A stretch of 29,733 nucleotides of DNA, taken from positions 1-29,733 of IMG/VR virus record IMGVR_UViG_3300048589_000267; one strand, written 5' to 3'. A program made the position numbers and the translations under genes. The DNA is from a virus. Numbering within the stretch: the first letter of the stretch is position 1; every line of letters starts with the position of its first letter. The notes beneath the pieces are model-generated. The model saw only the letters and a list, made by a program, of their open reading frames with translations. It searched no databases and was not told the DNA's origin. Shown here in pieces: positions 1,113-17,832 of the stretch.

Positions 1113-1184
1113 GTGCGGTAATGGAGAGGTGAAGGTGATCAGCCCCCCACAACAGCACTTGGTGGTGTTGATGGTTGCGGAGCG

Positions 1185-1213
1185 AAACGCCGGGGATCAT
1201 CTCCCCGGCGTTT
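1185..1213 (+). terminator. Hairpin terminator after the integrase
   Basis: A perfect 12-bp stem (AAACGCCGGGGA / TCCCCGGCGTTT) with a 5-nt loop begins 72 bases after the integrase stop. The 3' arm ends in TTT and is followed by a T-rich stretch, as in an intrinsic terminator. The stem is symmetric with AAA at its other end, so it could also stop transcription arriving leftward from the tRNA. Confidence 0.7.
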
Positions 1214-1350
1214 GCTATTTGCCGGCAGACCCGCGACGCAGTTCTGCCAGAGGCGCCCGACGTGTCAGCATGACCCGGCGTCGTCAGACTATGCCGTACT
1301 TCGCTACGGCCACGTTCGGGCGATCCGCCACGGGCGAACCCTGAACCCGG

Positions 1351-1423
1351 TGGCGGCGGCAGGATTTGCACCTGCGTCCTTCTGGTTATGAGCCAGACGA
1401 GCTAACTGCTGCTCCACGCCGCA
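1351..1423 (-). tRNA. Initiator-like tRNA-Met (CAT), atypical and possibly degenerate
   Basis: On the minus strand a full cloverleaf can be drawn: acceptor TGCGGCG/CGCCGCC, D stem GAGC/GCTC, anticodon stem TCTGG/CCAGA around loop CTCATAA (anticodon CAT), T stem GCAGG/CCTGC, discriminator A. Two features match bacterial initiator tRNA rather than elongator Met or Ile2: the unpaired 1-72 position (T.C) and the GTGGAGCAGC D-arm with an A11-T24 pair. It lacks the three consecutive G-C pairs of initiator anticodon stems, because 29-41 is T-A. The D-loop has T at position 19 and the T-loop reads TGCAAAT (G at 55), so both standard elbow contacts are disturbed. CCA is not encoded (CCG follows the discriminator). 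It is either phage-borne and variant, or decaying. Confidence 0.7.
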
Positions 1424-1429
1424 ATGCCG

Positions 1430-1556
1430 TGCTATCCGGGAGCTTGTCCGGAACGCCACCCTGAGGGCAGCTATTCGCACGATCTCTGCCACCGACTGAC
1501 ATCGCTCGGTAGCCACACTACTGCGCTACGGGAATTACAGGACTTTCACCTACCCG
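1430..1556 (-). ncRNA. Candidate structured RNA: chain of short hairpins beside the tRNA
   Basis: The stretch between the methyltransferase gene and the tRNA has no convincing reading frame. On the minus strand it holds a chain of short inverted repeats: CGGG/CCCG (1529-1556), GTAGC/GCTAC (1509-1529), ACCGA/TCGGT (1491-1510), GGCAG/CTGCC (1466-1490), CCC/GGG (1459-1467) and TCCGG/CCGGA (1435-1452). Some ends overlap by one or two bases, so not all can form at once. No known RNA family is recognised. It may be a phage RNA processed with the tRNA, the remains of further tRNA genes, or chance pairing in GC-rich DNA. Confidence 0.25.
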
Positions 1557-1609
1557 GCCACAGCTTAGGGGCATTTTAGCAGTTGGGCCGCTTATGGTCA
1601 CCTGATGCC

Positions 1610-1633
1610 AATTCCCTCGAATTCGAGGGAATT
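1610..1633. repeat. 24-bp perfect palindrome, left copy of a pair flanking the methyltransferase gene
   Basis: AATTCCCTCGAA is followed directly by its exact reverse complement, giving a perfect palindrome centred on GAATTC. It overlaps the last bases of the methyltransferase stop codon. A near-identical copy lies at 3416-3439, upstream of the gene. It could be an operator, a transcription stop, a cassette boundary or a methylation target; the sequence alone does not decide. Confidence 0.8.
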
Positions 1634-3317
1634 AGAACCCTAGCGTTTGTTGCACCGATTGATCCTTCATGCGTGTCGCTGACATGTACGGCGGGATGGG
1701 GTGCGGGATGCGCGGTTTCGCGCCGGCCATCAGTTCTTCGATGGTGAGGAGCTGAAGCAATGGGAGCGTGCGCCCGTCCTGCGGCCACGTATAGTGGCCC
1801 GCGCGTCGGACGGCGTCCATCATTCCGGCCGTCGGATTTGCGAGCGTCACCATGACCCCCATCTCCGATGGGTAGGACGCCACCGTGCCCGCAAGATCGC
1901 GCACCATCGCCGGTCCGATGCGATCCCCACCCTTGACGGACACAATCGCTCGCCCAATGTCGGAGATTTCGTTTGCGGACTTGTACCGCTGGGCGAACCG
2001 GATGATGCCGTCGATGCCGCGATCGCCCTGCTGTTTGCCACGTTCGTTTGGCTGGCCATCGACCAGTGTGACGGCCCACCGCTCGAACTCGAACGCATCC
2101 TTCTCGAACAACGCACGGGCGCCGGCGAGCTCGTTTGGCACGCCGAACACGTCAATGGCCGCCGCGACCTCAGCACCGAACCGATCCTTGATTCGATTCT
2201 TCATCAGATCGACCGCCAGAATGGTGACGTCGATGCCGATCCAGCGCCGGCCGAGCCGTTCAGCCGCTTCAATTGTTGTGCCACATCCGCAAAACGGATC
2301 CAGCACGACATCGCCGGGATTGGAGCTGGCGCTGATGATGCGCTCCAGGAGGGCGACGGGTTTCTGGGTGGGATAGCCGAGGCGTTCTTTGGCTCTTGCG
2401 TTGACTGGAGCGATATCATCCCACACGCTCTGCACCGGCACGCCGCTAAGTTCATCGAGATATCGGATATATCGTGGCCATCCACCAATCTTCTTTGGCC
2501 AATAAATCCGTCCTTCAATCTCCAGTCTGTCTAGCGTTTGAACCGCAAACTTCCAATGGTTGCCCTTCGTGTTTGGATCGAATCCCCTCCAAGGCTTGCC
2601 AGAATCTCCGTTTCGAGTTCCCTGTGCGGTGAGGTCGGATAGGGTGTAGTGTCGTCCCTGATCGTCGACGTTCCTGTAATGCGTGTCTTTTAGGCTTTCT
2701 GAATGGTCTATGTACTGCGGATTCCACGTGTAGTCATTCCCTTTTGAGAAGAAGAGGATGGAGTCAGTATTCGGTCCCCATCTATGAGCATCACTATGAG
2801 CACTTGTTCGCTTCCAAATCACTTCATTCCGGAAGTTCTTCGGCCCAAAGATCGCATCGAGAATCATCTTCAGATAGTGGCTCGCCGTCGGATCGCAGTG
2901 CAGGTAGAGGCTGCCGGTCGGCTTCAACACCCGGTGCAGTTCCACCAGCCGGGCCGTCATCATGACCAGGTACGCCAGCATGTCGTTGGTGCCGAGCAGG
3001 TGTCGGAGCGCCATCATGGCTTCCGGAATGTTGCCGGGGCCGTAGCCGCGCTGGGTAAGGTCGATGAAGGTCTCTTCGGCGTCGTGGCCCCACATCCAGG
3101 TATCGTCGAACGCTCTGATCTGGGCCGACGATTCGAGACCGGTCCGGTCCTTGAACAGCACGTTGTAGTTGCGGTTCGAGTTGAACGGAGGATCCAGGTA
3201 GACCAAATCGCAGCACTCATCGGGGAACCGGTTGCGATCGCGGAGCCATTCGAGGTTGTCGCCATAGAAGAGCGTGTTGCGGTCAAACACCGGAGCACCC
3301 CGATCAATTAGCTGCAC
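1632..3317 (-). CDS. Beta-class DNA methyltransferase fused to a PD-(D/E)XK (Mrr-like) nuclease domain
   Basis: Predicted amino-methyltransferase (N6-adenine or N4-cytosine) with a C-terminal nuclease-like domain, 561 residues. Catalytic motif IV is DPPF (residues 42-45); the SAM-binding motif I follows much later as DPFCGCGTT (340-348). This IV-before-I order defines the beta class, and the long middle part should hold target recognition. From about residue 408 a second domain begins: FERW (410-413), then GDRGIDG with D436, then VSVKGG with K462. This resembles the D...xK core of Mrr-type nucleases, with Ser where Glu or Gln is usual. Such fusions occur in phages and free-living bacteria, often annotated only as methyltransferase. 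GTG at 3317 is the longest start but has little ribosome site; GTG at 3290, behind GGGGTG, fits the upstream promoter better. No separate restriction subunit is seen. Confidence 0.88.
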   Translation of the reverse strand: MQLIDRGAPVFDRNTLFYGDNLEWLRDRNRFPDECCDLVYLDPPFNSNRNYNVLFKDRTGLESSAQIRAFDDTWMWGHDAEETFIDLTQRGYGPGNIPEAMMALRHLLGTNDMLAYLVMMTARLVELHRVLKPTGSLYLHCDPTASHYLKMILDAIFGPKNFRNEVIWKRTSAHSDAHRWGPNTDSILFFSKGNDYTWNPQYIDHSESLKDTHYRNVDDQGRHYTLSDLTAQGTRNGDSGKPWRGFDPNTKGNHWKFAVQTLDRLEIEGRIYWPKKIGGWPRYIRYLDELSGVPVQSVWDDIAPVNARAKERLGYPTQKPVALLERIISASSNPGDVVLDPFCGCGTTIEAAERLGRRWIGIDVTILAVDLMKNRIKDRFGAEVAAAIDVFGVPNELAGARALFEKDAFEFERWAVTLVDGQPNERGKQQGDRGIDGIIRFAQRYKSANEISDIGRAIVSVKGGDRIGPAMVRDLAGTVASYPSEMGVMVTLANPTAGMMDAVRRAGHYTWPQDGRTLPLLQLLTIEELMAGAKPRIPHPIPPYMSATRMKDQSVQQTLGF

Positions 3318-3330
3318 TCAGAGTGTCCGC

Positions 3331-3360
3331 ATTCTTGCAGAATGGATAAAGGGGTGTCAA
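3331..3360 (-). promoter_or_regulatory. Sigma-70-like promoter for the methyltransferase gene
   Basis: On the minus strand a perfect -35 box TTGACA (3355-3360) is followed after 18 bases by AAGAAT (3331-3336), a four-of-six -10 match. Transcription would begin just upstream of the GTG at 3317, leaving almost no leader for that start. This favours the GTG at 3290, which has a GGGGTG ribosome site. It suggests the gene is expressed independently of the late operon, for example in the lysogen. Confidence 0.5.
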
Positions 3361-3383
3361 CGGGACCAGGCGCGAAGCATCGG

Positions 3384-3409
3384 AAAAGCCGCCGAAATGA
3401 TCCGGCGGC
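3384..3409 (-). terminator. Intrinsic terminator after the 79-residue gene
   Basis: On the minus strand a 7-bp stem (GCCGCCG / CGGCGGC) with an 8-nt loop is followed directly by TTTT. It lies about 35 bases after the stop of the 79-residue gene and before the methyltransferase promoter, separating the two transcription units. Confidence 0.6.
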
Positions 3410-3415
3410 GCTTCT

Positions 3416-3439
3416 AATTCCATCGAATTCGAGGAGTTT
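3416..3439. repeat. Imperfect palindrome, right copy of the pair flanking the methyltransferase gene
   Basis: AATTCCATCGAATTCGAGG matches the left copy at 1610 in 18 of its first 19 bases, then diverges. It keeps the TCGAATTCGA core and lies about 100 bases upstream of the methyltransferase start, between the -35 box and the stop of the 79-residue gene. Together with the left copy it exactly brackets the methyltransferase cassette. Confidence 0.7.
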
Positions 3440-3444
3440 GGGCG

Positions 3445-3684
3445 CTAGTCCGATCGTTCCACCTCGGTAAAGTAGTGATCATCAGCCGCCGCCATCAACT
3501 CGTCGAAGTCGAAGCCGTCACGATCGCACAGGTGCATCAGGTTGGCCAGCAGGTCCACCACGGCGAGCTCGCGCCCTTGCCCGTCTTCGATCACGGCGAT
3601 TCTCAGGGGGCGGTACTGGCGTCGGAGGGATGCGTCTACCACGCGGACGGTATGGTTCAGCAGCTGGCGCGTGAGGAACGACAA
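3445..3684 (-). CDS. Small acidic hypothetical protein (79 aa)
   Basis: Unrecognised 79-residue protein. The C-terminal half has a helical acidic pattern (LLANLMHLCDRDGFDFDEL, then DHYFTE) of a kind seen in small proteins of mobile elements, which supports it being real; no function is inferred. The start is TTG, since no ATG or GTG lies in frame after the upstream stop, and the only nearby GGAGG is about 20 bases away. That makes the start uncertain. It lies 40 bases after the AAA+ ATPase stop on the same strand and ends before a terminator, so the two genes probably share one transcript. Confidence 0.6.
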   Translation of the reverse strand: MSFLTRQLLNHTVRVVDASLRRQYRPLRIAVIEDGQGRELAVVDLLANLMHLCDRDGFDFDELMAAADDHYFTEVERSD

Positions 3685-3723
3685 TGTGTTTGCGGTTACG
3701 AGGCGCCTCCAACATTCTACTCC

Positions 3724-4719
3724 TCAACTAGGCTTTGACCGAGCTCTGCGTCGTTCTCGGAGCGCATCGATAAGTGCATCAGCCTGAATAATGGTGGTAT
3801 GGGCAAGGATCGCGTCTTTCGCAGCTTGGTCACAGGCTTGGGCGATTTCGGAATGACTGAGTCCTTCTGATTCAGAAACAGCTGCGGCCCAATCCACTTT
3901 GTCGCACTTCATCGTTCCGAGGCGGTTTCTCATTACTTGTAACGCAACGGCAGGCGAAGGAGACGTGTATTCAATCACCGCGTCGAACCTTCTAAACAAA
4001 GCTTGATCGAGCGATCTCACATGATTGGTCGCCGCAACAACCAGGCTGTCAGAGTCATCGATCTCGAGGAATTGCAGGAACGAATTGAGTACCCGACGGA
4101 TTTCTCCCACATCGTTACCTGATCCACGTTCACTGCCGAGCGAATCAAACTCATCGAAAAGATACACGCCGTGAGTGCTCTGCAAAGCATCGAACACTAA
4201 ACGTAGCTTCGCAGCCGTCTCTCCCAGAAAGCGCGTTACCAAGCCATCGAGTTGAACGGTAAACAGCGGGATCCCCAATTCACCCGCAAATGCACTCGCC
4301 GTCATTGATTTGCCGGTCCCAGGTGGACCCACGAGCAGCACCTTGCGCATAGGCGAATAGCCATGCATTCGAATTCGCTTCCGCTGGCGTTGTTCGCGTA
4401 CCACGCGCTCAAGTCTGTGTCGCAATTGGTCATCAAGCGCCAAATCCGATAGTCGAAGCTTTGGGTAGCTAACCGACATTAACCCAGCAAGTTCGCCTCG
4501 GGGTTGAGCAAGGGGGGTGACGCGCCGGCTAAGAACATTATCGGGTGAATTGGCCTTTGCCTTGGCTTGATCAACGGCGTCGCGAAGATCTTGCGCGAGT
4601 CGGCCATGTCCGCTCCGCGCAGCCTGAGCCGCCACTTGAAGGGCTACCGAGTAGAATCTCGCATCATCCCCCTCAGCGTGGCTTCGAATCAGGGCCTTCA
4701 CTTGCTCCGCGTTTGCCAT
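3724..4719 (-). CDS. AAA+ ATPase (331 aa), solitary
   Basis: Single-domain AAA+ ATPase of the FtsH/spastin-like group. The first ~90 residues are a helical N-terminal part, followed by Walker A GPPGTGKS (131-138), Walker B LFDEFD (D189, E190), sensor 1 VVAATN (227-232), an RRFD arginine-finger segment (243-246) and a C-terminal helical lid. The ATG at 4719 is chosen over an upstream start at 4815 because GGAGGACAA directly precedes it. In other bacteria, ATPases of this type often neighbour a subtilisin-like (S8) protease and are discussed as defence or stress modules; no protease gene is present here. A perfect dyad 70-95 bases upstream suggests repressor control. Its codon use and lower GC than the structural genes fit an acquired accessory gene. 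Confidence 0.85.
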   Translation of the reverse strand: MANAEQVKALIRSHAEGDDARFYSVALQVAAQAARSGHGRLAQDLRDAVDQAKAKANSPDNVLSRRVTPLAQPRGELAGLMSVSYPKLRLSDLALDDQLRHRLERVVREQRQRKRIRMHGYSPMRKVLLVGPPGTGKSMTASAFAGELGIPLFTVQLDGLVTRFLGETAAKLRLVFDALQSTHGVYLFDEFDSLGSERGSGNDVGEIRRVLNSFLQFLEIDDSDSLVVAATNHVRSLDQALFRRFDAVIEYTSPSPAVALQVMRNRLGTMKCDKVDWAAAVSESEGLSHSEIAQACDQAAKDAILAHTTIIQADALIDALRERRRARSKPS

Positions 4720-4786
4720 TTGTCCTCCGCGGCGCCGCGCAAGCACACGACATGAGAAAGAGAGTACGAGCGAATCGCACGTACAT

Positions 4787-4814
4787 TGTGCATTAGTAGA
4801 CCATTCAATGCACA
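4787..4814. promoter_or_regulatory. Operator-like dyad upstream of the AAA+ ATPase
   Basis: TGTGCATT (4787-4794) and AATGCACA (4807-4814) form a perfect 8-bp inverted repeat with a 12-bp spacer, lying 68-95 bases before the ATPase start codon. Arms one helical turn apart suit a dimeric repressor. A TTGAAT inside it could serve as a -35 box, but no clear -10 is seen. It touches the strong hairpin at 4813-4844. Confidence 0.45.
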
Positions 4815-4844
4815 TGAAGCCGGCAGCTCCCTGCCGGCTTCATG
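4813..4844. terminator. Perfect 14-bp hairpin ending the late operon
   Basis: CATGAAGCCGGCAG and its exact complement are separated by a CTCC loop, 37 bases after the stop of the last lysis-region gene. No T-tract follows on either strand, so it is not a textbook intrinsic terminator. Position and stability suggest transcription end or mRNA 3' protection between the late operon and the accessory genes. Confidence 0.5.
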
Positions 4845-4881: not shown

Positions 4882-5280
4882 CTACCCCGTTTGCTGCTCG
4901 ATCGCCGGCGCAATCCCGCTCGGCTTCCAGAGCGTCTGGTACGTGATCGATGCCATCACCAGAATGATCAGCACTGCGGACAGGAAGTCGCCCCGCTCGA
5001 ACTCGCCGGCGAAGTAGGACGTGCCGGCCGCCGCAACCACGGAGAAAACGAAGACCGCGCCACCTTTCACCTCAGAGCGCCACCCTTGCCGGATGACGGC
5101 CGCGGCCGCGAGTGGCAGGAACGTGCCGACCAGGAACGCCCAGCGCCCGACGTTGTTGTCGGGCGCCACGCCCTCCCCTACACCCTGCGCTGCAGCCAGC
5201 TGGATCGAGGCGGCGAGCAGCGCGAAGGCAATCACGAACCCGAACCACGAGAACCGAATCAGTCGATTGAGCTTGACCAC
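4882..5280 (-). CDS. Four-helix membrane protein, holin candidate (132 aa)
   Basis: Small membrane protein with hydrophobic segments at about residues 10-32, 47-64, 73-92 and 100-120 and a short polar tail. The first segment could also be a signal peptide ending at AAAQ. It is the last gene of the leftward operon, a few bases after the 24-residue membrane peptide and just beyond the endolysin, so holin or lysis regulation is the natural guess. Holins share no universal motif, so this rests on topology and position only. The start is GTG at 5280 behind AAAGGA. Confidence 0.65.
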   Translation of the reverse strand: MVKLNRLIRFSWFGFVIAFALLAASIQLAAAQGVGEGVAPDNNVGRWAFLVGTFLPLAAAAVIRQGWRSEVKGGAVFVFSVVAAAGTSYFAGEFERGDFLSAVLIILVMASITYQTLWKPSGIAPAIEQQTG

Positions 5281-9545: not shown

Positions 9546-12325
9546 GAGTAGCTCGCCTCCACCCACGCGACATCGACGTCGCACGAGACGCCGGCTTCAT
9601 CGACGGCGATCGACAGCGTGTGCGCGCCAGGCGTGGCGTGGAGCCAGCTGGCCGCAAGGGTCTGCGTGAGATCGGCCGCCACGTCATAGACCGTGTAGGC
9701 CATCGGCGGCACCGTCCTGATTTCATCGCCGGTGCTGGTGTCGGCCACGTAGGAGGTCATGTTCGGCCCGTCAATGACGAGCGACTCATCGGCGAACAGC
9801 ACGATGTAGCGCCCGGTCGTTTCCGGGTTGATCGCCACGCGCTGGTACGGATAGCCGGCGTCGTTCCGGTCGAGGAAGAGATCGCGGTACAGGACGTAGG
9901 CGTCGGTTTCGGCGCTGATTGCGCTGCAGGCGATATCGGAGCTGTCGAGCGTCAGGTGCAGGTAGGTGTGGTTGCGGGCCGTCGCCACGTAGCCCGGGTT
10001 GATGATCCGGTAGCGGGAGGTGGAATCCGGCGTTGTGGTCCACGTGTCCACGGTCAGCGAGGTCGCCGAGCTGTCGGTGATGGTGCGCGATTGCCCCGCC
10101 CCGACGCCGCTGATGATCCTGACGGTACCGCCGATCCACTGATCGACCACCCAGTCCTTGCCGTCATCGACCAGCGTGGTCGCGGTGGCCGATGTGGCGG
10201 TGCCCTCGTCGCCCGCCCACGACGCGCCGATTTCATCCGCGCCGTTCGGGACCAGGAACATGCCGACCGCGTAGGTGTCCGGCTCCAGTGTGACGTTCTG
10301 GATGGCTTCGTTGCCGAGCGACGTGTTCGGCGTCGCGTCGGTGAATTCGTGTGTCCACGCGGTCGCGCCATTCTCCTGACGCGATCCGAAGACGAATTCG
10401 CACATGCTGTTCGGGTTCTTCAACTGGTAATCGAAGCGGGCCGCCGTAATGGGCACCGGCAGCGAGATGCTGACGCCGTCGTGCCCGCCCTGGTCCTTGA
10501 ATTCCGGGCCGCCTTCCCAGGTGCGGTTGACATCGAGGATGGCGACGTAATCGTCGGTGCCGCCCGGGTTGAACGGAGTGAAGGGCTTTTGCACGAAGTG
10601 GTCGCGGTTGTCCACGTAGAGATCCCACGACCACGCGCCCGGCACCGTCATGTCGAACCGGTTCGGTTTCTTCTGACCGCTCGACAGCCACCACAGGCCG
10701 CGCGTGCTGTCGGTCCGCTCCGTCTTGCGCACCGGGTAGACCCAGCGGTCATTGCTCGACATGCGGACCAGCACCGACACGCCGTTCGCCAGTGCCCCGC
10801 CCCCGAGCGCCGCGTGTGTGACGCTCGTGGTCGTGCTGTCGGAAATCTCGATCTCGGTGCCGGCCTGCGCCCCGGACAGCACCGTCATGGTGCCGCCGAT
10901 CCACCGGTCTATCTCCGAGCCGAGACCGCTGGGGATGTTGGTCACGGTGGCGCTGCTGCCGGTGGTGGTCGTGACGTAGGCATAGGAGATGTCGAATGCC
11001 GGGCGGGTGAAGCTGGTGAACTGGTGATTGACGCCCGGCAGGACCGTTTGATCCGAGACCAGCAGCGTGTAGGTGATCGACTCCCCGACCGGCAGATGGT
11101 CGATGATCAGCCAGCAATACGCCTGCACGGTGTCGTAATCGCTGATCTGGCAGGGTTGCGGTTTGCCGTCGCGGAGCAGCGCCCAGTAGGTGCCGGCGAC
11201 GGCGCTGCTGCTGTTGTCCCCGAGATCCACTTCATACGGGTGATTGAAGAGCGTCTTGGTGCCGTTGTTGGTGATCGTGAACTGCCGCGCGATGATCGAT
11301 TGCGGGAAGTTCCCGGCCGGCGTCATCGTCACCGTCAGGTTGGTGGGCGCGTTGCCGCCCACGGTGAACGGGGGGCTGGTGAACGGCCCGGTCACGAACT
11401 CGAACGCATCGAAGTAGGTGGTTCCGGTTTCACCTGCGGTCGCGAACACGCGCACGCCAACTTTGCAGTAGTCGGTCGTCGCCGGGGCAGGCGTGTCTAG
11501 GGTGTGAAATTGTTGCCACACATCAACCGCGTATTCGCCGGGTAGTTCAATCGTGTCGGCGAAGTTCTCTGAGATAAACGCATCAGCGGCGGTGTAGAAC
11601 CGAACCACTGGATAAATGGTGATGCCGGAACTGCTCGTCATCCCTTCGACGCTACGCACCGCCGCCCTGATGGTAATGACATCGCCCTCACTCGCAGGAA
11701 ACTCGGTGTCGTTCAAGACGTAGATCGCACCGCCCGATCCGGTGTTCACGGTCACGGCCAACTCACCCGAGCCGCCGTCGGCGTCGTACACGGTGCCGGT
11801 GTCGCGGGTGAACGCGCTGGTGACGTTGGCGGGGTCGGCTGACTTGGTCCAGCCGGTCGTGTTGGTAGCGAACGACGGGTTGGTGATCGCGGTGGCGGTG
11901 ACGACATCGGTGTCGGTGTCGGGAGTGGTGGCGTGCCAGAGCGGATCGGTCGCGTACCAGACGACATCGAACGTGTCGACGGTGCCGTCAACGACCGAGC
12001 CCGGCAACGTGATGCGCGCCTGAACCGACCACTCGGTTGCATCGTTGAACGCCACCACGAGCTCGCCGGGCGACGTATCGAGCGGATTGAGCCGTTGCAG
12101 CGCCAGCGTCCACGTGGCTTCGATGGTGCGGGAGACGGTGCCATCGTTGCCAAACTCACACGGAATGGCGCGATCACCGATGGTGACGGCGGTAATGACG
12201 CCGTCGGCGCCACTTCTCGGAACGGTGGTGAAGGTGGGGTTCCACGCGCCGCGCACGTCGTCGTCCATCCCGATCCAGATGCCGTCGTCGCCCGGTTCCC
12301 ACCCGCGCCAGCTCACCACGCGCAT
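9542..12325 (-). CDS. Large distal-tail / tail-tip protein (927 aa)
   Basis: Large tail protein immediately after the tape measure, where siphophages encode the distal tail (Dit) protein. The N-terminal ~130 residues fit a Dit-like core that would sit on the tail tube. The rest is a series of beta-rich, Thr/Asp-rich modules, as in evolved Dit proteins carrying carbohydrate-binding domains. One module type occurs twice: RWIGGTMTVLSGAQAGTEI near 10.9 kb and QWIGGTVRIISGVGAGQSR near 10.1 kb, each followed by an IxDSxxTS motif. A Trp-rich region between them (WGGPEF-type segments near 10.5 kb) could bind sugars. It overlaps its neighbours at both ends (TGATG and ATGA). Host-surface binding is inferred. 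Confidence 0.75.
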   Translation of the reverse strand: MRVVSWRGWEPGDDGIWIGMDDDVRGAWNPTFTTVPRSGADGVITAVTIGDRAIPCEFGNDGTVSRTIEATWTLALQRLNPLDTSPGELVVAFNDATEWSVQARITLPGSVVDGTVDTFDVVWYATDPLWHATTPDTDTDVVTATAITNPSFATNTTGWTKSADPANVTSAFTRDTGTVYDADGGSGELAVTVNTGSGGAIYVLNDTEFPASEGDVITIRAAVRSVEGMTSSSGITIYPVVRFYTAADAFISENFADTIELPGEYAVDVWQQFHTLDTPAPATTDYCKVGVRVFATAGETGTTYFDAFEFVTGPFTSPPFTVGGNAPTNLTVTMTPAGNFPQSIIARQFTITNNGTKTLFNHPYEVDLGDNSSSAVAGTYWALLRDGKPQPCQISDYDTVQAYCWLIIDHLPVGESITYTLLVSDQTVLPGVNHQFTSFTRPAFDISYAYVTTTTGSSATVTNIPSGLGSEIDRWIGGTMTVLSGAQAGTEIEISDSTTTSVTHAALGGGALANGVSVLVRMSSNDRWVYPVRKTERTDSTRGLWWLSSGQKKPNRFDMTVPGAWSWDLYVDNRDHFVQKPFTPFNPGGTDDYVAILDVNRTWEGGPEFKDQGGHDGVSISLPVPITAARFDYQLKNPNSMCEFVFGSRQENGATAWTHEFTDATPNTSLGNEAIQNVTLEPDTYAVGMFLVPNGADEIGASWAGDEGTATSATATTLVDDGKDWVVDQWIGGTVRIISGVGAGQSRTITDSSATSLTVDTWTTTPDSTSRYRIINPGYVATARNHTYLHLTLDSSDIACSAISAETDAYVLYRDLFLDRNDAGYPYQRVAINPETTGRYIVLFADESLVIDGPNMTSYVADTSTGDEIRTVPPMAYTVYDVAADLTQTLAASWLHATPGAHTLSIAVDEAGVSCDVDVAWVEASYS

Positions 12326-15300
12326 CAGCCCATCCTCCTCTTGCTCATGACGCGGCGTGTCCGATCCGCAAGGGCGCTCTCCTCAACCGTGATGGTCTGG
12401 TGGATGACGTTGCCCTTGTAGACCACGCTCGCGCCCTGGCTGCCCCGCCGGCGTCCCATGGGATCGAGCCGTCCTCGCGTGCCGGCGGCATTCGTGACCG
12501 TTGATCCCGTTGGCAGCGACACCAGCTCCGGCCCGGCCTCACCGACGAGCCGCAGGTGGCCGCCGGTCGCCATTCCCTCGACACGGGCGGCGATGTTGCG
12601 CTGTGAGTCGGGCAGAATGAACGTGCCGGTGGCCGCCCGGCCCGCGTTGACAAGTGATCCGCCACCAATATCGAACGTGTTGACGTAGGTGGTAATGGAT
12701 CGGCCGTCCATCGCGTTCAGCAACGCGAGCATCCGGCTCAGCCGCCCTTCAACATCGTTGTCAGTCATCTTGACGTTGATGCCGAACGCTTCAGCGATCA
12801 CTTCCGTGAACGTGGTGAGCGTGGAGTTCAGGGTGTTGAGCGCGGTGGTCGCGGAATCGACTTCGCCAAAGTTGACCTCGATGCCGGTCTCTGTCTCGGA
12901 GATCAACCCCATACTGATCAGCATCGCCTTGAGTTGCGGATCGGCAGCTGCGATCTCAGCGATCATCGCCGTCGTGGACGCCTGCATGGCGTCGGAGGAC
13001 GACGCGGCCGCCAGCTGGGCCAGTTGCAGCGCCTGCGCGGCTTTCGCCTGGTCCATGAAGCCGAGCGCCACCACCTGCTCTTCCGCGGACCGATCGGCCA
13101 GGCTATCAACGTACCGGGCATGTTCTTCGGCCAGCTGCGCCATGAGCGGCAGCTGCTTGGCCTGAATGCGCAGCGCGTCTTCCTGCACCGAGTTGTTTGC
13201 CAGCATGATCCGGTGATTGGCTTCCAACCCGTCGCGATACGTCTTGCCGGAGATCAGGCCGTCACGGAACAACTGGTTGAGCGTGCTGGATTCCTTGTTG
13301 CCCTCGGTCAGGCTGTTCGACCAGTCCCAGACGCTTTCGGAGAGCCGGGCGAAGTTCTGGGCCGCCCCGACGACACCGCCGAACGTGCTGTCGAGAACCG
13401 TGGCCGGGTTCATGCTGGACATCGACTCGCGCACGGCATCGGCGATATCCCGGTAGGCGTCCTCAAGTTCAACCAGGTCGCCCTTGGTGTCGCCGAGGAA
13501 CTGACTATGCACGGCCTGGACGGCGGCAAAGTCAGCAGTCGCACGAGAGGCCTGATCGATCGCCGGAGTGAGCTCGAGGTACTTGCTGTAGTAGTCGCTC
13601 ATCGCCGGCATCGACGCGAGCACGGCCTCTACAAAGTCGTACTGGACGACGATGCCCTCAGCCGTCAGGGCGCTCAGATCGGCGATCGCTTGCCCCATCG
13701 AAGCGAAACGCATCGCCCACGGCCCGACGTCCACCACATCGGCGGCCATCGGTTCAGCGCCGGACCACAAACCCTGCCCGCGCTGAGACGCGGCGAGGGC
13801 TTGCATCACGCGGTTCTGTTCTTCCATCGCCGCAGCCGCATTCACGGTCGCGATTGCCGCCTGATTCTGGGCTTGCTCGTAATCCATCCATGCTTGCGTT
13901 GATTGCTCGATTGCCGTTGCCTGCGCGATTGCCGCTTCTGTTTGTTGCGCCCAAGCGGACAACACCAACTGGTAGACCAGTTGCAGTTGGTCGCTCGTGA
14001 GATTGTTCAGATTGCCGATGGCGATGCCTGATTCGAGCAACGCCGCTTCGAGTTGCCGGAATGTTTCCGGGGTGAGCTGCAGTAGCTCGTCAAGCACACT
14101 GTTGAGCGTCGTATCCGCACCGGTGAGCGATGGTCCGAATGGGTCCATCTCCTGCACCGTAGTGGTCATGTCGCGAATGTCTTGGGCAAAGTAGAGGAGT
14201 TCCTGGTACGCCTCGCCACCCTTGCCGAGCGAATTCGCCCACCGGGTCAGAGCATCGGTCTGCGCGTCGATGGAGTCCATCAGGTCGTCTTGCGTTAGGG
14301 CCAGGTACGCGACCGCGCCGCCGAGCGTAACAATGGCCGGGGCCGCAATCAGCGCCGCCGCGCCAGCCGCCGTGATGGCTCCCGCTAGTCCCACCGTTGC
14401 CCCGCTGCTGCCGATTACCGTAGCAAGGGACGAGAATAGCCCCGCTCCGCCGGCGGCAGCCCGGAAGCTCTTGACTCCCTGTCCGAGCCGAACCAGACCA
14501 CCGACCGCCAAGCCGGCTTCGAGCCCGAACGATCCAAGCCCTGCCGCGGCGTCGCCGATCGGGCCGGTGAAGTCCACGAGAGCCAGCGCGGCATCTTGTG
14601 TCTGGTTAGCGAGTTGCTGCACCTGGCCGGTGGTCGTGTTCGCCGCGTCTCCCGCCGCCCCGACTGCGAATTCCGATTGCTCCATCAGGGCGTTGAACCG
14701 GAACGCGCCCGCTTCCGCGTTCGTCATGGACAACGTGAGGTTGTCCTGATCGATCGCGGCCTGATTCATCGTCAGGCCGAGCAGTTCGGCCGATTCGGCC
14801 TCACCGCGAATAGCCGCGGCAACCCGCTGTGATGCGTCAACGAGCGTGATGCCGTTGAGTGAGGCGAGATCACCGGATACAGAAATCAACCGCTTTATCT
14901 GATCTGTGGTCAATCCGTAATTGCGCTGCAACGTGCCCATGACGTTCGCAGCTTCGATAACCTGGTCGTTACTGAATATCGTGGTGGACTGCATTTGCTC
15001 CGCGAACGCCACAAATGACGCCGACGCCGTCCCATAAGTCCGCTCCAGAGACAAGAGCGCAATCTCGTGGTTGCGGGCCTGATTCGAGTAAATGGTGAAC
15101 GATGCACCCAGGGCGGCCAGACCTTGCTGTGAACGATTGACAGCATCTCGATAGTTTTCGAGCGAGCGACTGGTTCGTGCGGACTGCGTCGCCACATCGG
15201 CAGCAGAACGGGTAACCCGTTGCTGTGTCGTATCCAGCTCGCGCATCGACTGTTCAGTCGTTTCGGCGGCGCGATCCATTTGATCGAGGCCGCTCTTCGC

Positions 15301-15420
15301 GCGCCGCGACGACGACTCCATGTCCTGCGCGGATGTCTTCGCGGCCTGTCCGATCTCCTTGAAGATACGGACGGCGTCGCCCTCGACAACGATTTCAACA
15401 GCTAAACGGCGATCGGCCAT
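12325..15420 (-). CDS. Tail tape measure protein (1031 aa)
   Basis: Longest gene in the window. It opens with a long helical, coiled-coil region rich in Gln, Ser and Ala (RRAKSGLDQMDRAAETTEQS). A hydrophobic Gly/Ala stretch lies at about residues 285-385, more helices follow, and a Gly-rich C-terminus (RAATGTFILPDSQRN) ends it. This pattern, and a place between the tail-assembly chaperones and the Dit-like gene, define tape measure proteins, which set tail length and occupy the tube lumen. By the usual 0.15 nm per residue the tail would be about 155 nm. ATG 15420 has AAGGA upstream. Unusually, the gene is separated from the chaperones by an opposite-strand gene. Confidence 0.92.
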   Translation of the reverse strand: MADRRLAVEIVVEGDAVRIFKEIGQAAKTSAQDMESSSRRAKSGLDQMDRAAETTEQSMRELDTTQQRVTRSAADVATQSARTSRSLENYRDAVNRSQQGLAALGASFTIYSNQARNHEIALLSLERTYGTASASFVAFAEQMQSTTIFSNDQVIEAANVMGTLQRNYGLTTDQIKRLISVSGDLASLNGITLVDASQRVAAAIRGEAESAELLGLTMNQAAIDQDNLTLSMTNAEAGAFRFNALMEQSEFAVGAAGDAANTTTGQVQQLANQTQDAALALVDFTGPIGDAAAGLGSFGLEAGLAVGGLVRLGQGVKSFRAAAGGAGLFSSLATVIGSSGATVGLAGAITAAGAAALIAAPAIVTLGGAVAYLALTQDDLMDSIDAQTDALTRWANSLGKGGEAYQELLYFAQDIRDMTTTVQEMDPFGPSLTGADTTLNSVLDELLQLTPETFRQLEAALLESGIAIGNLNNLTSDQLQLVYQLVLSAWAQQTEAAIAQATAIEQSTQAWMDYEQAQNQAAIATVNAAAAMEEQNRVMQALAASQRGQGLWSGAEPMAADVVDVGPWAMRFASMGQAIADLSALTAEGIVVQYDFVEAVLASMPAMSDYYSKYLELTPAIDQASRATADFAAVQAVHSQFLGDTKGDLVELEDAYRDIADAVRESMSSMNPATVLDSTFGGVVGAAQNFARLSESVWDWSNSLTEGNKESSTLNQLFRDGLISGKTYRDGLEANHRIMLANNSVQEDALRIQAKQLPLMAQLAEEHARYVDSLADRSAEEQVVALGFMDQAKAAQALQLAQLAAASSSDAMQASTTAMIAEIAAADPQLKAMLISMGLISETETGIEVNFGEVDSATTALNTLNSTLTTFTEVIAEAFGINVKMTDNDVEGRLSRMLALLNAMDGRSITTYVNTFDIGGGSLVNAGRAATGTFILPDSQRNIAARVEGMATGGHLRLVGEAGPELVSLPTGSTVTNAAGTRGRLDPMGRRRGSQGASVVYKGNVIHQTITVEESALADRTRRVMSKRRMG

Positions 15421-15464
15421 TATCGGTATCCTTGTGCCGGGTTATGCGCGAAAGGGATAGACAG

Positions 15465-16016
15465 ATGAAACGGTTGTTCCTGGCGATTCTGTTGATCGCT
15501 TGTCTGGTTGGTGAGACCGCCGTCCAGGCCGACGATTCGCCGGCAGTGCTTGCGGCCGAAACGATCGGCGCGGGATGGATGTTGGTGGAGCACGCCGAAC
15601 CCGGAAACTCGCTTTCCACTTGGAAGAAGCTGACCAGATACGATCATCCGGACGGTTCGGTTGTGGCTATCTGGTTGATCGAGCTTGGCGACAGCATCGG
15701 CGCACTCGAGAGCAACTGGGGCGCTGCGCGCCTCTTCTACGGTGCGACGGCAGAACGGGAAGCAGTTGTTCCTGATCCGCTCTCGGAGGGGATCAGTGCT
15801 GCCGACGTTGCATTGCCTGACGGCGTCTCTGACGGCATCCGAATCGAGGGGCTGGGTCGCACGAATCAGGACACGACTGGTGCCGGGCTCTTTGGTTCGC
15901 TCGAACACCGGGTTGCAATCGTCGTGCTCACCGAAGGCACCGTGAACGACCTGACCGGCGTCGCCGCCGCCGACTACATTGCCGGCCTCTACTTCGCTGC
16001 GTTGTCCGATCAGTAG
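15465..16016 (+). CDS. Exported protein or lipoprotein encoded against the late operon (moron candidate, 183 aa)
   Basis: The only clear plus-strand gene within the late region. From ATG 15465 (AAAGGG eight bases upstream) it begins MKRLFLAILLIAC, a typical signal peptide. LIAC fits a lipobox, and a type I cleavage after VQA is an alternative. The mature part has a globular mixed pattern (GWMLVEHAEPGNSLSTWKK, AIWLIELGDSIGALESNW, HRVAIVVLTEGTV) and no recognised domain. The minus-strand frame over the same bases (242 aa) is Arg/His-rich and looks like a shadow. The gene ends 2 bases from the convergent G-T stop and starts 44 bases from the divergent tape measure start, so it was inserted neatly between two normally adjacent genes. 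Expression in the lysogen is inferred. Confidence 0.82.
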   Translation: MKRLFLAILLIACLVGETAVQADDSPAVLAAETIGAGWMLVEHAEPGNSLSTWKKLTRYDHPDGSVVAIWLIELGDSIGALESNWGAARLFYGATAEREAVVPDPLSEGISAADVALPDGVSDGIRIEGLGRTNQDTTGAGLFGSLEHRVAIVVLTEGTVNDLTGVAAADYIAGLYFAALSDQ

Positions 16017-16018
16017 GC

Positions 16019-16818
16019 TCATGGGGTGCCCTTTGGTTTCATGGCCTCGGCCTTGTCGATTGCCTCGTTTGCTTCCTTGATCCCGTCGTCCCATTCGTGG
16101 GCGACCTCGATGGCCAGCGCATAGAGATCGGCCGGCGTGTTGAGCCATTCGAGGATCGTCAGGCCTCGAACGTTGACGGACTTCGCGAAGACGACGTCGT
16201 TCGGGACCGGCGGGAGTTTGACCCGCGTGTTTTTGGTTTTTCGGCGCTCGGCTCTGGCGTAGGCTCCTGCCGAGCGCCGGATGTCCGGGAGCCGATCGGA
16301 AAACCCGCGCGATACGCCATCAGGGTTGTGTTGAGCAGCCAGCCCGCGATCTCCGGCGTGATGGCCGCCAGCGCCGCCGCCGCGTCTTCACGGGGCGACG
16401 GCACCGGCTCCACGTCTCCGGCGTCTCCGATCGTGACCAGGTTCCACCGGTGGATGTGCGGGGCGATGAGGCCGAACCGTTCGACCCCGGCCTCGGTCAT
16501 GGTCTCTGCGTAGGCCAGTACCTCAGACGTCCGGGCGTCGATCAACGCGCGTTGTCGATCGTCGTCTCCCTCGGCGGCCTTCAGGGCGTCGAGGTAGGCG
16601 GCCGATTCGGCCTCATGCGCCTTCATCAGCGCCTCAACCCGCGCGTCGATCTCCGCCGCAGCCTCGGTGAGGTGGCGGCGCTCCCCGTTGGTCAGGTTGC
16701 GCCGCACCTCCGCCCACAGGCCCGCGTACAGCGGTTCACCGGTCGCTGGATCCTTGAGGTCGCATTCGATCCGCACGGTGGTGACGGCTTGCAGATTGAA
16801 TCCACCGGTGACGCTCAT
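16019..16818 (-). CDS. Tail assembly chaperone G-T fusion, made by -1 frameshift
   Basis: After the G product's slippery stretch, the -1 frame stays open and protein-like for about 70 codons (KLPPVPNDVVFAKSVNVRG, then LTILEWLNTPADLYALAIE) to a TGA at 16019. This T segment has no start codon of its own near its beginning, so it must be reached by frameshifting, as in the lambda G/G-T pair. The product would be about 266 residues. In siphophages G and G-T coat the tape measure and recruit tail tube subunits during assembly and are absent from the virion. The sequence following the shift reads as helical and acidic (HEWDDGIKEANEAIDKAEA). Confidence 0.8.
16159..16818 (-). CDS. Tail assembly chaperone G (219 aa)
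   Basis: Zero-frame product of the chaperone locus, between the tail tube gene and the tape measure. It starts at ATG 16818 behind AAGGAG. Residues 1-185 are protein-like: a short beta N-terminus, a charged helical middle (RRHLTEAAAEIDARVEALM) and a helical region around WLLNTTLMAYRAGFP. The last ~25 residues (SNSRRSRTTSSSRSPS) lie beyond the shift site and are low-complexity, as expected where the coding signal has moved to the -1 frame. Most ribosomes should make this shorter form. Confidence 0.8.
   Translation of the reverse strand: MSVTGGFNLQAVTTVRIECDLKDPATGEPLYAGLWAEVRRNLTNGERRHLTEAAAEIDARVEALMKAHEAESAAYLDALKAAEGDDDRQRALIDARTSEVLAYAETMTEAGVERFGLIAPHIHRWNLVTIGDAGDVEPVPSPREDAAAALAAITPEIAGWLLNTTLMAYRAGFPIGSRTSGARQEPTPEPSAEKPKTRGSNSRRSRTTSSSRSPSTFEA
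16205..16245 (-). promoter_or_regulatory. Programmed -1 ribosomal frameshift signal
   Basis: On the minus strand two runs of five A (16237-16241 and 16230-16234) are separated by CC, giving zero-frame codons GAA AAA CCA AAA ACA; each in-frame AAA is preceded by an A and can slip back by one. Three bases after the second run GCGGG and CCCGC (16226-16222 and 16214-16210) form a 5-bp stem with a 7-nt loop, a usual stimulator. An AGGAG lies about 25 bases upstream. The site is not a canonical X-XXY-YYZ heptamer, so the exact slip codon is unsure. Confidence 0.65.
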
Positions 16819-16827
16819 CGGAACTCC

Positions 16828-17832
16828 TTAGACGAGGGTGGCCAGCGCGTTCACCACCGACACCGTGTAGTCGTTGCCGAACGTGGCATCGATGTTGCCG
16901 GCCTGCAGCTGCATGACGGCGGTCCGGTTGTGTTCGCGCTCGCTGGCCGCCCACGAAGCCCAGTAGCCAACGATGTCGATCGTGATCGACTTGCGGACCG
17001 TGGTGTGGATGATCGAGCCCTCCTGGTAGAGCCGAACCGCCCGCAGGACGGGCTCGGTGCTCAGGAAGTCGTCGTATTCGTCGTAGTCGTCGAATTCAAC
17101 GGTCAGCTGCGCGTCGAGTGTGCGCTCACCGCGTCCGGTCTTGTTGGGGGCCGCGCCGGTCACGTTCTCGACGAACGGCTTGAACGACCGGTTGATCGCC
17201 CCGCTGAGCGATGCGTCGATGAGCCAGCTCGTTTGCTGCGTGTCGCCGATGTCTCCGACGGCATCGTCGATGAAGATCTTCGTGCCGGCCGCTCGAATCT
17301 CTTCGGTGGTGCGCTGGGTCAGGGAGGCGAACGTGCCGGCCACCGGCAGCCCCAGCATCTTCAGGCCGACGTCGAGCATCCACTGCGGCTCGTTGGCGTT
17401 GTCCGGGGCAATGCGCAGCTGCCAGGTATCGACCATGACCTGCGCGTAGTCTTCGACGTGTCCGGTCACGCCAACTTCAGCCGTGAACGACTTCAGCGTG
17501 TCGGTCGTCAGGTCGGGGTCGAAGTCGTACGCGTACGCGGCCGGCGATCCACCGTCGGTCACGCCGGTGACGCCGCCTTCGGCGATCATCTGCAGCCACC
17601 ACGCCATGTCCTCGTAGGTGGCCGACTCGCTGTAGTTGGTCGTCGGCATGAATCGCGGGTAGGTGGCCTTCTGGCGGCGCACGTAGGAACCGTTGCGGAC
17701 ATTGCTCCAGACGGGCGGCCGGTCAATGTTCGGCGGCGTCCAGACGCCGTTCAGGATCCGGGTGGCGGCGACCGCGGTACCACGGGTGACCTCGATCCCC
17801 GCCTGGATTTTCTCCTGGAATAGTTCAGGCAC
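16828..17832 (-). CDS. Major tail tube protein (334 aa)
   Basis: Predicted tail tube subunit. It lies immediately before the chaperone pair, the normal siphophage position. The N-terminal motif FQEKIQAGIEVTRGTAVAA is typical of long-tube proteins of the phage tail tube family, and the remainder is beta-rich with alternating strands (QLTVEFDDYDEYDDF, RKSITIDIVGYWASW). At 334 residues it is larger than the lambda V-type core, so it may carry an extra surface domain. The start is GTG 17832; GGAGGG at the end of the preceding gene serves as the ribosome site, implying coupled translation. Confidence 0.8.
   Translation of the reverse strand: MPELFQEKIQAGIEVTRGTAVAATRILNGVWTPPNIDRPPVWSNVRNGSYVRRQKATYPRFMPTTNYSESATYEDMAWWLQMIAEGGVTGVTDGGSPAAYAYDFDPDLTTDTLKSFTAEVGVTGHVEDYAQVMVDTWQLRIAPDNANEPQWMLDVGLKMLGLPVAGTFASLTQRTTEEIRAAGTKIFIDDAVGDIGDTQQTSWLIDASLSGAINRSFKPFVENVTGAAPNKTGRGERTLDAQLTVEFDDYDEYDDFLSTEPVLRAVRLYQEGSIIHTTVRKSITIDIVGYWASWAASEREHNRTAVMQLQAGNIDATFGNDYTVSVVNALATLV

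What the first reader, a model, noticed from the sequence alone, without database searches (positions are those of the whole stretch)
15465..16016. Exported-protein moron inserted between G-T and tape measure genes
The gene runs against the late operon, fits between two normally adjacent tail genes with 2- and 44-base gaps and encodes a signal peptide with a possible lipobox. A surface protein expressed from its own promoter in the lysogen could alter phage adsorption (superinfection exclusion) or host surface. Its domain is not recognised.
Basis: partly seen in the sequence, partly recalled or inferred. Interest (0 to 1): 0.65.

Follow-up and report, generated by a model that had tools for sequence, protein, structure and literature searches.

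The report
Reverse exported-protein gene in phage tail operon
A temperate-type bacterial virus carries an extra, backwards-facing gene for a secreted protein wedged between two tail genes that nearly touch in its relatives; it is most likely a cargo gene that benefits the infected cell, perhaps by keeping out competing viruses, but its protein resembles nothing known.

Summary
A 183-aa plus-strand ORF (15465-16016) lies exactly between the end of the frameshifted G-T chaperone frame (16019) and the tape measure start (15420), with 2- and 44-base gaps. Codon statistics favour it over the fully overlapping minus-strand ORF, which scores like ordinary antisense. It begins with a Sec signal peptide and a signal-peptidase-I-like site (VQA|DD); the proposed lipobox fails the PROSITE PS51257 pattern as applied here, so a secreted soluble protein is likelier than a lipoprotein. 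The two relatives found with a homologous tape measure (54% and 30% identity in best segment) have chaperone-to-tape-measure gaps of 12 and 3 bases and no insert; insertion is favoured over loss but not proven. E. coli phage HK97 carries a known moron, gp15 (superinfection exclusion), in this same slot, and its relative HK022 has the slot empty. No promoter or nearby terminator was recognised, so expression in the lysogen is untested. No homologue was found in any collection searched, and the single-sequence fold was unusable. Most likely a moron for an exported protein; superinfection exclusion acting on tape-measure-dependent DNA entry is the leading but unproven function. New member of a known kind, modest interest.

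The parts
15465..16016 (+). moron gene, 183 aa exported protein (mature about 161 aa, pI 4.2, net charge about -16, no further hydrophobic segment like the signal)
   Evidence: ORF and codon statistics
15465..15530 (+). predicted Sec signal peptide, residues 1-22, cleavage VQA|DD
   Evidence: hydropathy and cleavage-motif inspection; no SignalP available
15452..15455 (+). weak Shine-Dalgarno-like AAGG, 9 nt before the ATG
   Evidence: sequence
15421..15464 (.). 44-base spacer between moron start and tape measure start; carries the tape measure's AAGGA on the minus strand
12325..15420 (-). tape measure gene, 1031 aa
   Evidence: PHROG 167 E=5.6e-6; homologue in L002
16159..16818 (-). G-type tail assembly chaperone frame, 219 aa
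   Evidence: position between tail tube and tape measure; weak match (E=1e-4) to the relative's G
16019..16241 (-). T frame (-1) reached by inferred frameshifting at the A5 runs 16241-16237 or 16234-16230; ends ...ILEWLNTPADLYALAIEVAHEWDDGIKEANEAIDKAEAMKPKGTP*
   Evidence: translation in three frames; frameshifting inferred
16828..17832 (-). tail tube protein
   Evidence: Pfam Phage_tube_2 E=4.4e-5, below its curated cut-off; homologues in L003 and L004
6..1112 (+). large serine recombinase cut by the contig start (temperate lifestyle)
   Evidence: PF07508; 84% identical to a 486-aa recombinase in the relative

Best explanation
The ORF is a real cargo gene ('moron') inserted in reverse orientation between the T frame and the tape measure gene of a temperate siphovirus-type phage. 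It encodes a small acidic protein exported by the Sec pathway and probably released by signal peptidase I. Because it faces away from the late operon it is most likely transcribed separately, plausibly in the lysogen. The most likely function is superinfection exclusion: the exported protein would meet the incoming phage's tape measure or injection conduit outside the membrane and block DNA entry, as described for HK97 gp15 and TP-J34 Ltp. Shown here: the gene, its signal sequence, its absence from two relatives, and use of the same slot by HK97 gp15. Inferred: direction of the event (gain), expression in the lysogen, and the exclusion function.
For: Codon usage and six-frame pattern. Signal peptide. 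Relatives L002 and L003 lack the insert, gaps 12 and 3 bases, with homologous tail tube and tape measure on both sides; Arthrobacter phage Joann and Dulem virus 32 also have no gene annotated in the slot. HK97 has moron gp15 in the same slot and HK022 has none. Literature: gp15 and Ltp block DNA injection, and escape maps to tape measure changes (Ltp) or to HK022 tail tube plus tape measure genes (gp15) (PMC10883804). The recombinase indicates a temperate phage.
Against: No homologue, so function is inferred from position and export only. No promoter or nearby terminator found. HK97 gp15 is co-directional, short (62 aa) and reported as a predicted inner-membrane protein, with no sequence similarity seen here. 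Only two relatives with a homologous tape measure, both distant, were available. Trinucleotide composition does not mark the insert as foreign.
Confidence: 0.4

Rival explanations
1. It is an exported moron, but for host fitness or lysogenic conversion (binding a ligand, modifying the envelope, interacting with other cells) and not phage exclusion.
For: Signal peptide and soluble acidic mature domain; morons often serve host fitness (review abstracts). No defence-family match in PADLOC.
Against: The nearest positional precedent, HK97 gp15, is an exclusion protein. Lack of a PADLOC match is weak, since that library holds only described families.
Confidence: 0.35
2. The minus-strand ORF 15420-16148, whose TAA overlaps the tape measure ATG (TAATG), is the true gene or a longer T extension, and the plus-strand ORF is its shadow.
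For: It is open across the whole interval and its stop overlaps the tape measure start.
Against: Codon score -0.11 overall and -0.014 in the shared part, as expected for antisense; T already has its own frame ending at 16019; no family match; nothing comparable in L002 or L003.
Confidence: 0.06
3. The gene acts only as antisense control of the late operon, or is a recently captured gene that is decaying or not expressed.
For: No promoter or nearby terminator recognised, and a plus-strand transcript would run antisense into T and G.
Against: Intact ORF with coding-like codon usage, start site and signal peptide.
Confidence: 0.15

Closest known systems
HK97 gp15 superinfection-exclusion moron
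   Same: [quoted passage not shown] slot empty in the relative HK022. Envelope-located product that blocks DNA injection (PMC10883804).
   Different: gp15 is co-directional, 62 aa, predicted inner-membrane protein with YebO-family host homologues (PMC6379469); here the gene is reversed, 183 aa, with a cleavable-type signal peptide. No sequence similarity seen.
Ltp superinfection-exclusion lipoprotein of Streptococcus thermophilus phage TP-J34
   Same: Phage-encoded exported protein; reported target is the tape measure protein (PMC10883804; reference title).
   Different: Ltp is a lipoprotein; here the lipobox test fails. The window protein matches no Pfam, PHROG or NCBIfam family. Location of ltp in its genome not tested here.
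HK97 gp23 and HK022 gp23, reverse-oriented morons
   Same: Annotated moron products on the strand opposite the tail operon.
   Different: They sit between I and J, not in the chaperone-tape measure slot; sequences not compared.

Membership tests
Moron (phage cargo gene) | Extra gene between two genes that adjoin in relatives | tested here: met
   L002 gap 12 bases, L003 gap 3 bases, window 598 bases holding one ORF
Moron (phage cargo gene) | Own promoter and terminator | tested here: inconclusive
   No sigma-70-type promoter in 14500-17500; best loose match 8/12; one terminator-like hairpin on the plus strand at 16210-16226, about 195 bases downstream, with 2 sites found against 2.4 expected in shuffles. 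The host's promoter type is unknown.
Moron (phage cargo gene) | Expressed from the repressed prophage | not testable with these tools
   Needs lysogen RNA
Moron (phage cargo gene) | Base composition differing from the phage (often present, not obligatory) | tested here: not met
   Trinucleotide profile ranks at the 61st percentile of window segments for likeness to the rest of the window
Bacterial lipoprotein (lipobox) | PROSITE PS51257 core pattern at Cys13 | tested here: not met
   No match from either ATG 15465 or TTG 15432
Sec-exported protein, signal peptidase I | Basic N-terminus, hydrophobic core, small residues at -3/-1 | tested here: met
   MKR + LFLAILLIACLVG + VQA|DD; simple rules, not SignalP
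HK97 gp15 / YebO family | Sequence similarity | tested here: not met
   No BLASTP alignment to gp15 reported at E up to 1000
Superinfection exclusion protein | Protects a lysogen or expressing cell from related phages | not testable with these tools
   Needs phage challenge

The most novel reading that the evidence does not exclude
The gene founds a new family of secreted, non-lipidated superinfection-exclusion proteins that act on the tape measure of incoming phages, carried beside the tape measure gene and read against the late operon so that it can stay on while the operon is silent.
Probability: 0.12. Interest if true: 0.6.

Novelty: new member of a known kind. Interest (0 to 1): 0.3.

Why it matters
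If confirmed, it would add an unrelated exported protein to the chaperone-tape measure slot already used by the HK97 exclusion moron, suggesting that genes acting on tape-measure-dependent DNA entry recur beside the tape measure gene. It would also be a reverse-oriented gene in that slot, which none of the few other genomes I looked at has, and it shows how a nearly gapless insertion can sit in a late operon.

Tried and rejected
Minus-strand gene 15420-16148: rejected on codon statistics. Lipoprotein: rejected on PS51257. Foreign composition of the insert: not seen. Target-site duplication at the borders: no direct repeat of 6 or more bases found between the two border stretches, only a 7-base inverted match, likely chance. 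Homologues: none in PHROGs, Pfam, NCBIfam, PADLOC, PDB sequences, phages, plasmids, viral contigs (two scans) or genome contigs; the contig scans use short exact peptide patterns and find close relatives only. Fold: single-sequence AlphaFold2 gave mean pLDDT 38.7, and the PDB fold search of it gave nothing at E<=0.001, which says nothing either way. More relatives: further scans with the tail tube, tape measure, major head and distal tail proteins returned only the same two contigs or none.

Full report
Setting. The window is itself a virus record of 29,733 bases. The left end carries a large serine recombinase cut by the contig start, followed by a tRNA-Met, a DNA methylase and an AAA ATPase, an amidase, then a minus-strand tail and head module running back to terminase: tape measure (PHROG 167), tail tube (Phage_tube_2), major head protein and head morphogenesis protein, terminase large and small subunits. 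The recombinase indicates a temperate phage. The host was not identified.

Observation. A 183-aa plus-strand ORF runs 15465-16016. On the minus strand, the G frame (16818-16159) is followed by a -1 frame that reads as a plausible T domain and ends at 16019; two A5 runs at 16241-16237 and 16234-16230 are likely slip sites (frameshifting inferred). The tape measure starts at 15420. The ORF touches neither neighbour's reading frame.

Is it coding? Shadow ORFs are common here, and a 242-aa minus-strand ORF covers the same bases and ends in TAATG with the tape measure start. A codon model trained on 17 window genes gives the plus ORF +0.225 bits per codon. All 156 antisense-frame segments of the training genes lie at or below +0.153, and coding-frame segments average +0.33. 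The minus frame scores -0.014, the usual antisense value, and the six frames together follow the pattern of a plus-strand gene. One real gene in the set scores below zero, so the test is good but not absolute.

Export. The N-terminus MKRLFLAILLIACLVGETAVQA|DD has a basic start, a hydrophobic core and a signal peptidase I type site. The lipobox LIAC at Cys13 fails the PS51257 pattern from either possible start codon. The mature protein would be about 161 aa, pI 4.2 and without cysteine.

Presence and absence. Scans with the tape measure found two relatives: L002 (54% identity in best segment) and L003 (30%). In both, tail tube, G, T and tape measure follow in the same order, with T-to-tape-measure gaps of 12 and 3 bases. 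A search of the whole record behind L002 for the protein found no match. Two more remote tape-measure matches, Arthrobacter phage Joann and Dulem virus 32, have no gene annotated in the slot. Insertion in the window's lineage is the simpler reading; loss in the others is not excluded.

Precedent. HK97 carries moron gp15 between the frameshifted tail protein and the tape measure gene, while HK022 runs from gp14 to the tape measure without it. gp15 and the exported lipoprotein Ltp of TP-J34 block DNA injection; [quoted passage not shown] In HK97 and HK022, reverse-oriented morons are annotated elsewhere in the tail operon. This is precedent by position and export, not homology: the window protein did not align to gp15 and matched no profile library used.

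Expression. No sigma-70-type promoter was recognised in 14500-17500; the best loose match in 15330-15465 scores 8 of 12, reached or passed by 16 of 120 comparable stretches. The nearest plus-strand terminator-like hairpin is at 16210-16226, within chance expectation. A weak Shine-Dalgarno-like AAGG lies 9 nt before the ATG. Independent expression in the lysogen is therefore an inference from orientation alone.

Verdict. A genuine, reversed cargo gene for an exported orphan protein in a slot known to hold a moron. Superinfection exclusion acting on tape-measure-dependent entry is the leading functional guess (about 0.4), with host fitness close behind.

Noticed in passing
window 1113-4815: A tRNA-Met (1349-1423), a DNA methylase with Mrr-like domain (1632-3317) and an AAA ATPase of PHROG 3757 (3724-4815, low GC3 and atypical codon score) lie between the recombinase and the lysis genes; in the relative (L004) the homologous recombinase and amidase genes are only about 450 bases apart, so this looks like a second accessory block.
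   Followed up: partly
window 4882-5280, minus strand: A 132-aa membrane protein with a signal-like first segment and further hydrophobic stretches beside the amidase gene; possibly a holin or other envelope protein. No confident family match.
   Followed up: partly
L004 1757-2479, plus strand: The relative carries a different 240-aa protein with a signal-like N-terminus next to a short repressor-like gene; no significant similarity to the window protein.
   Followed up: partly
window versus L004/L005: The relative shares the recombinase (84% identity), lysis and tail genes (mostly 50-80%), but tblastn gave no match for terminase or major head protein: mosaic genomes.
   Followed up: partly
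window 15420-16148, minus strand: A 242-aa minus-strand ORF overlaps the plus ORF completely and shares TAATG with the tape measure start; codon scores mark it as antisense.
   Followed up: yes
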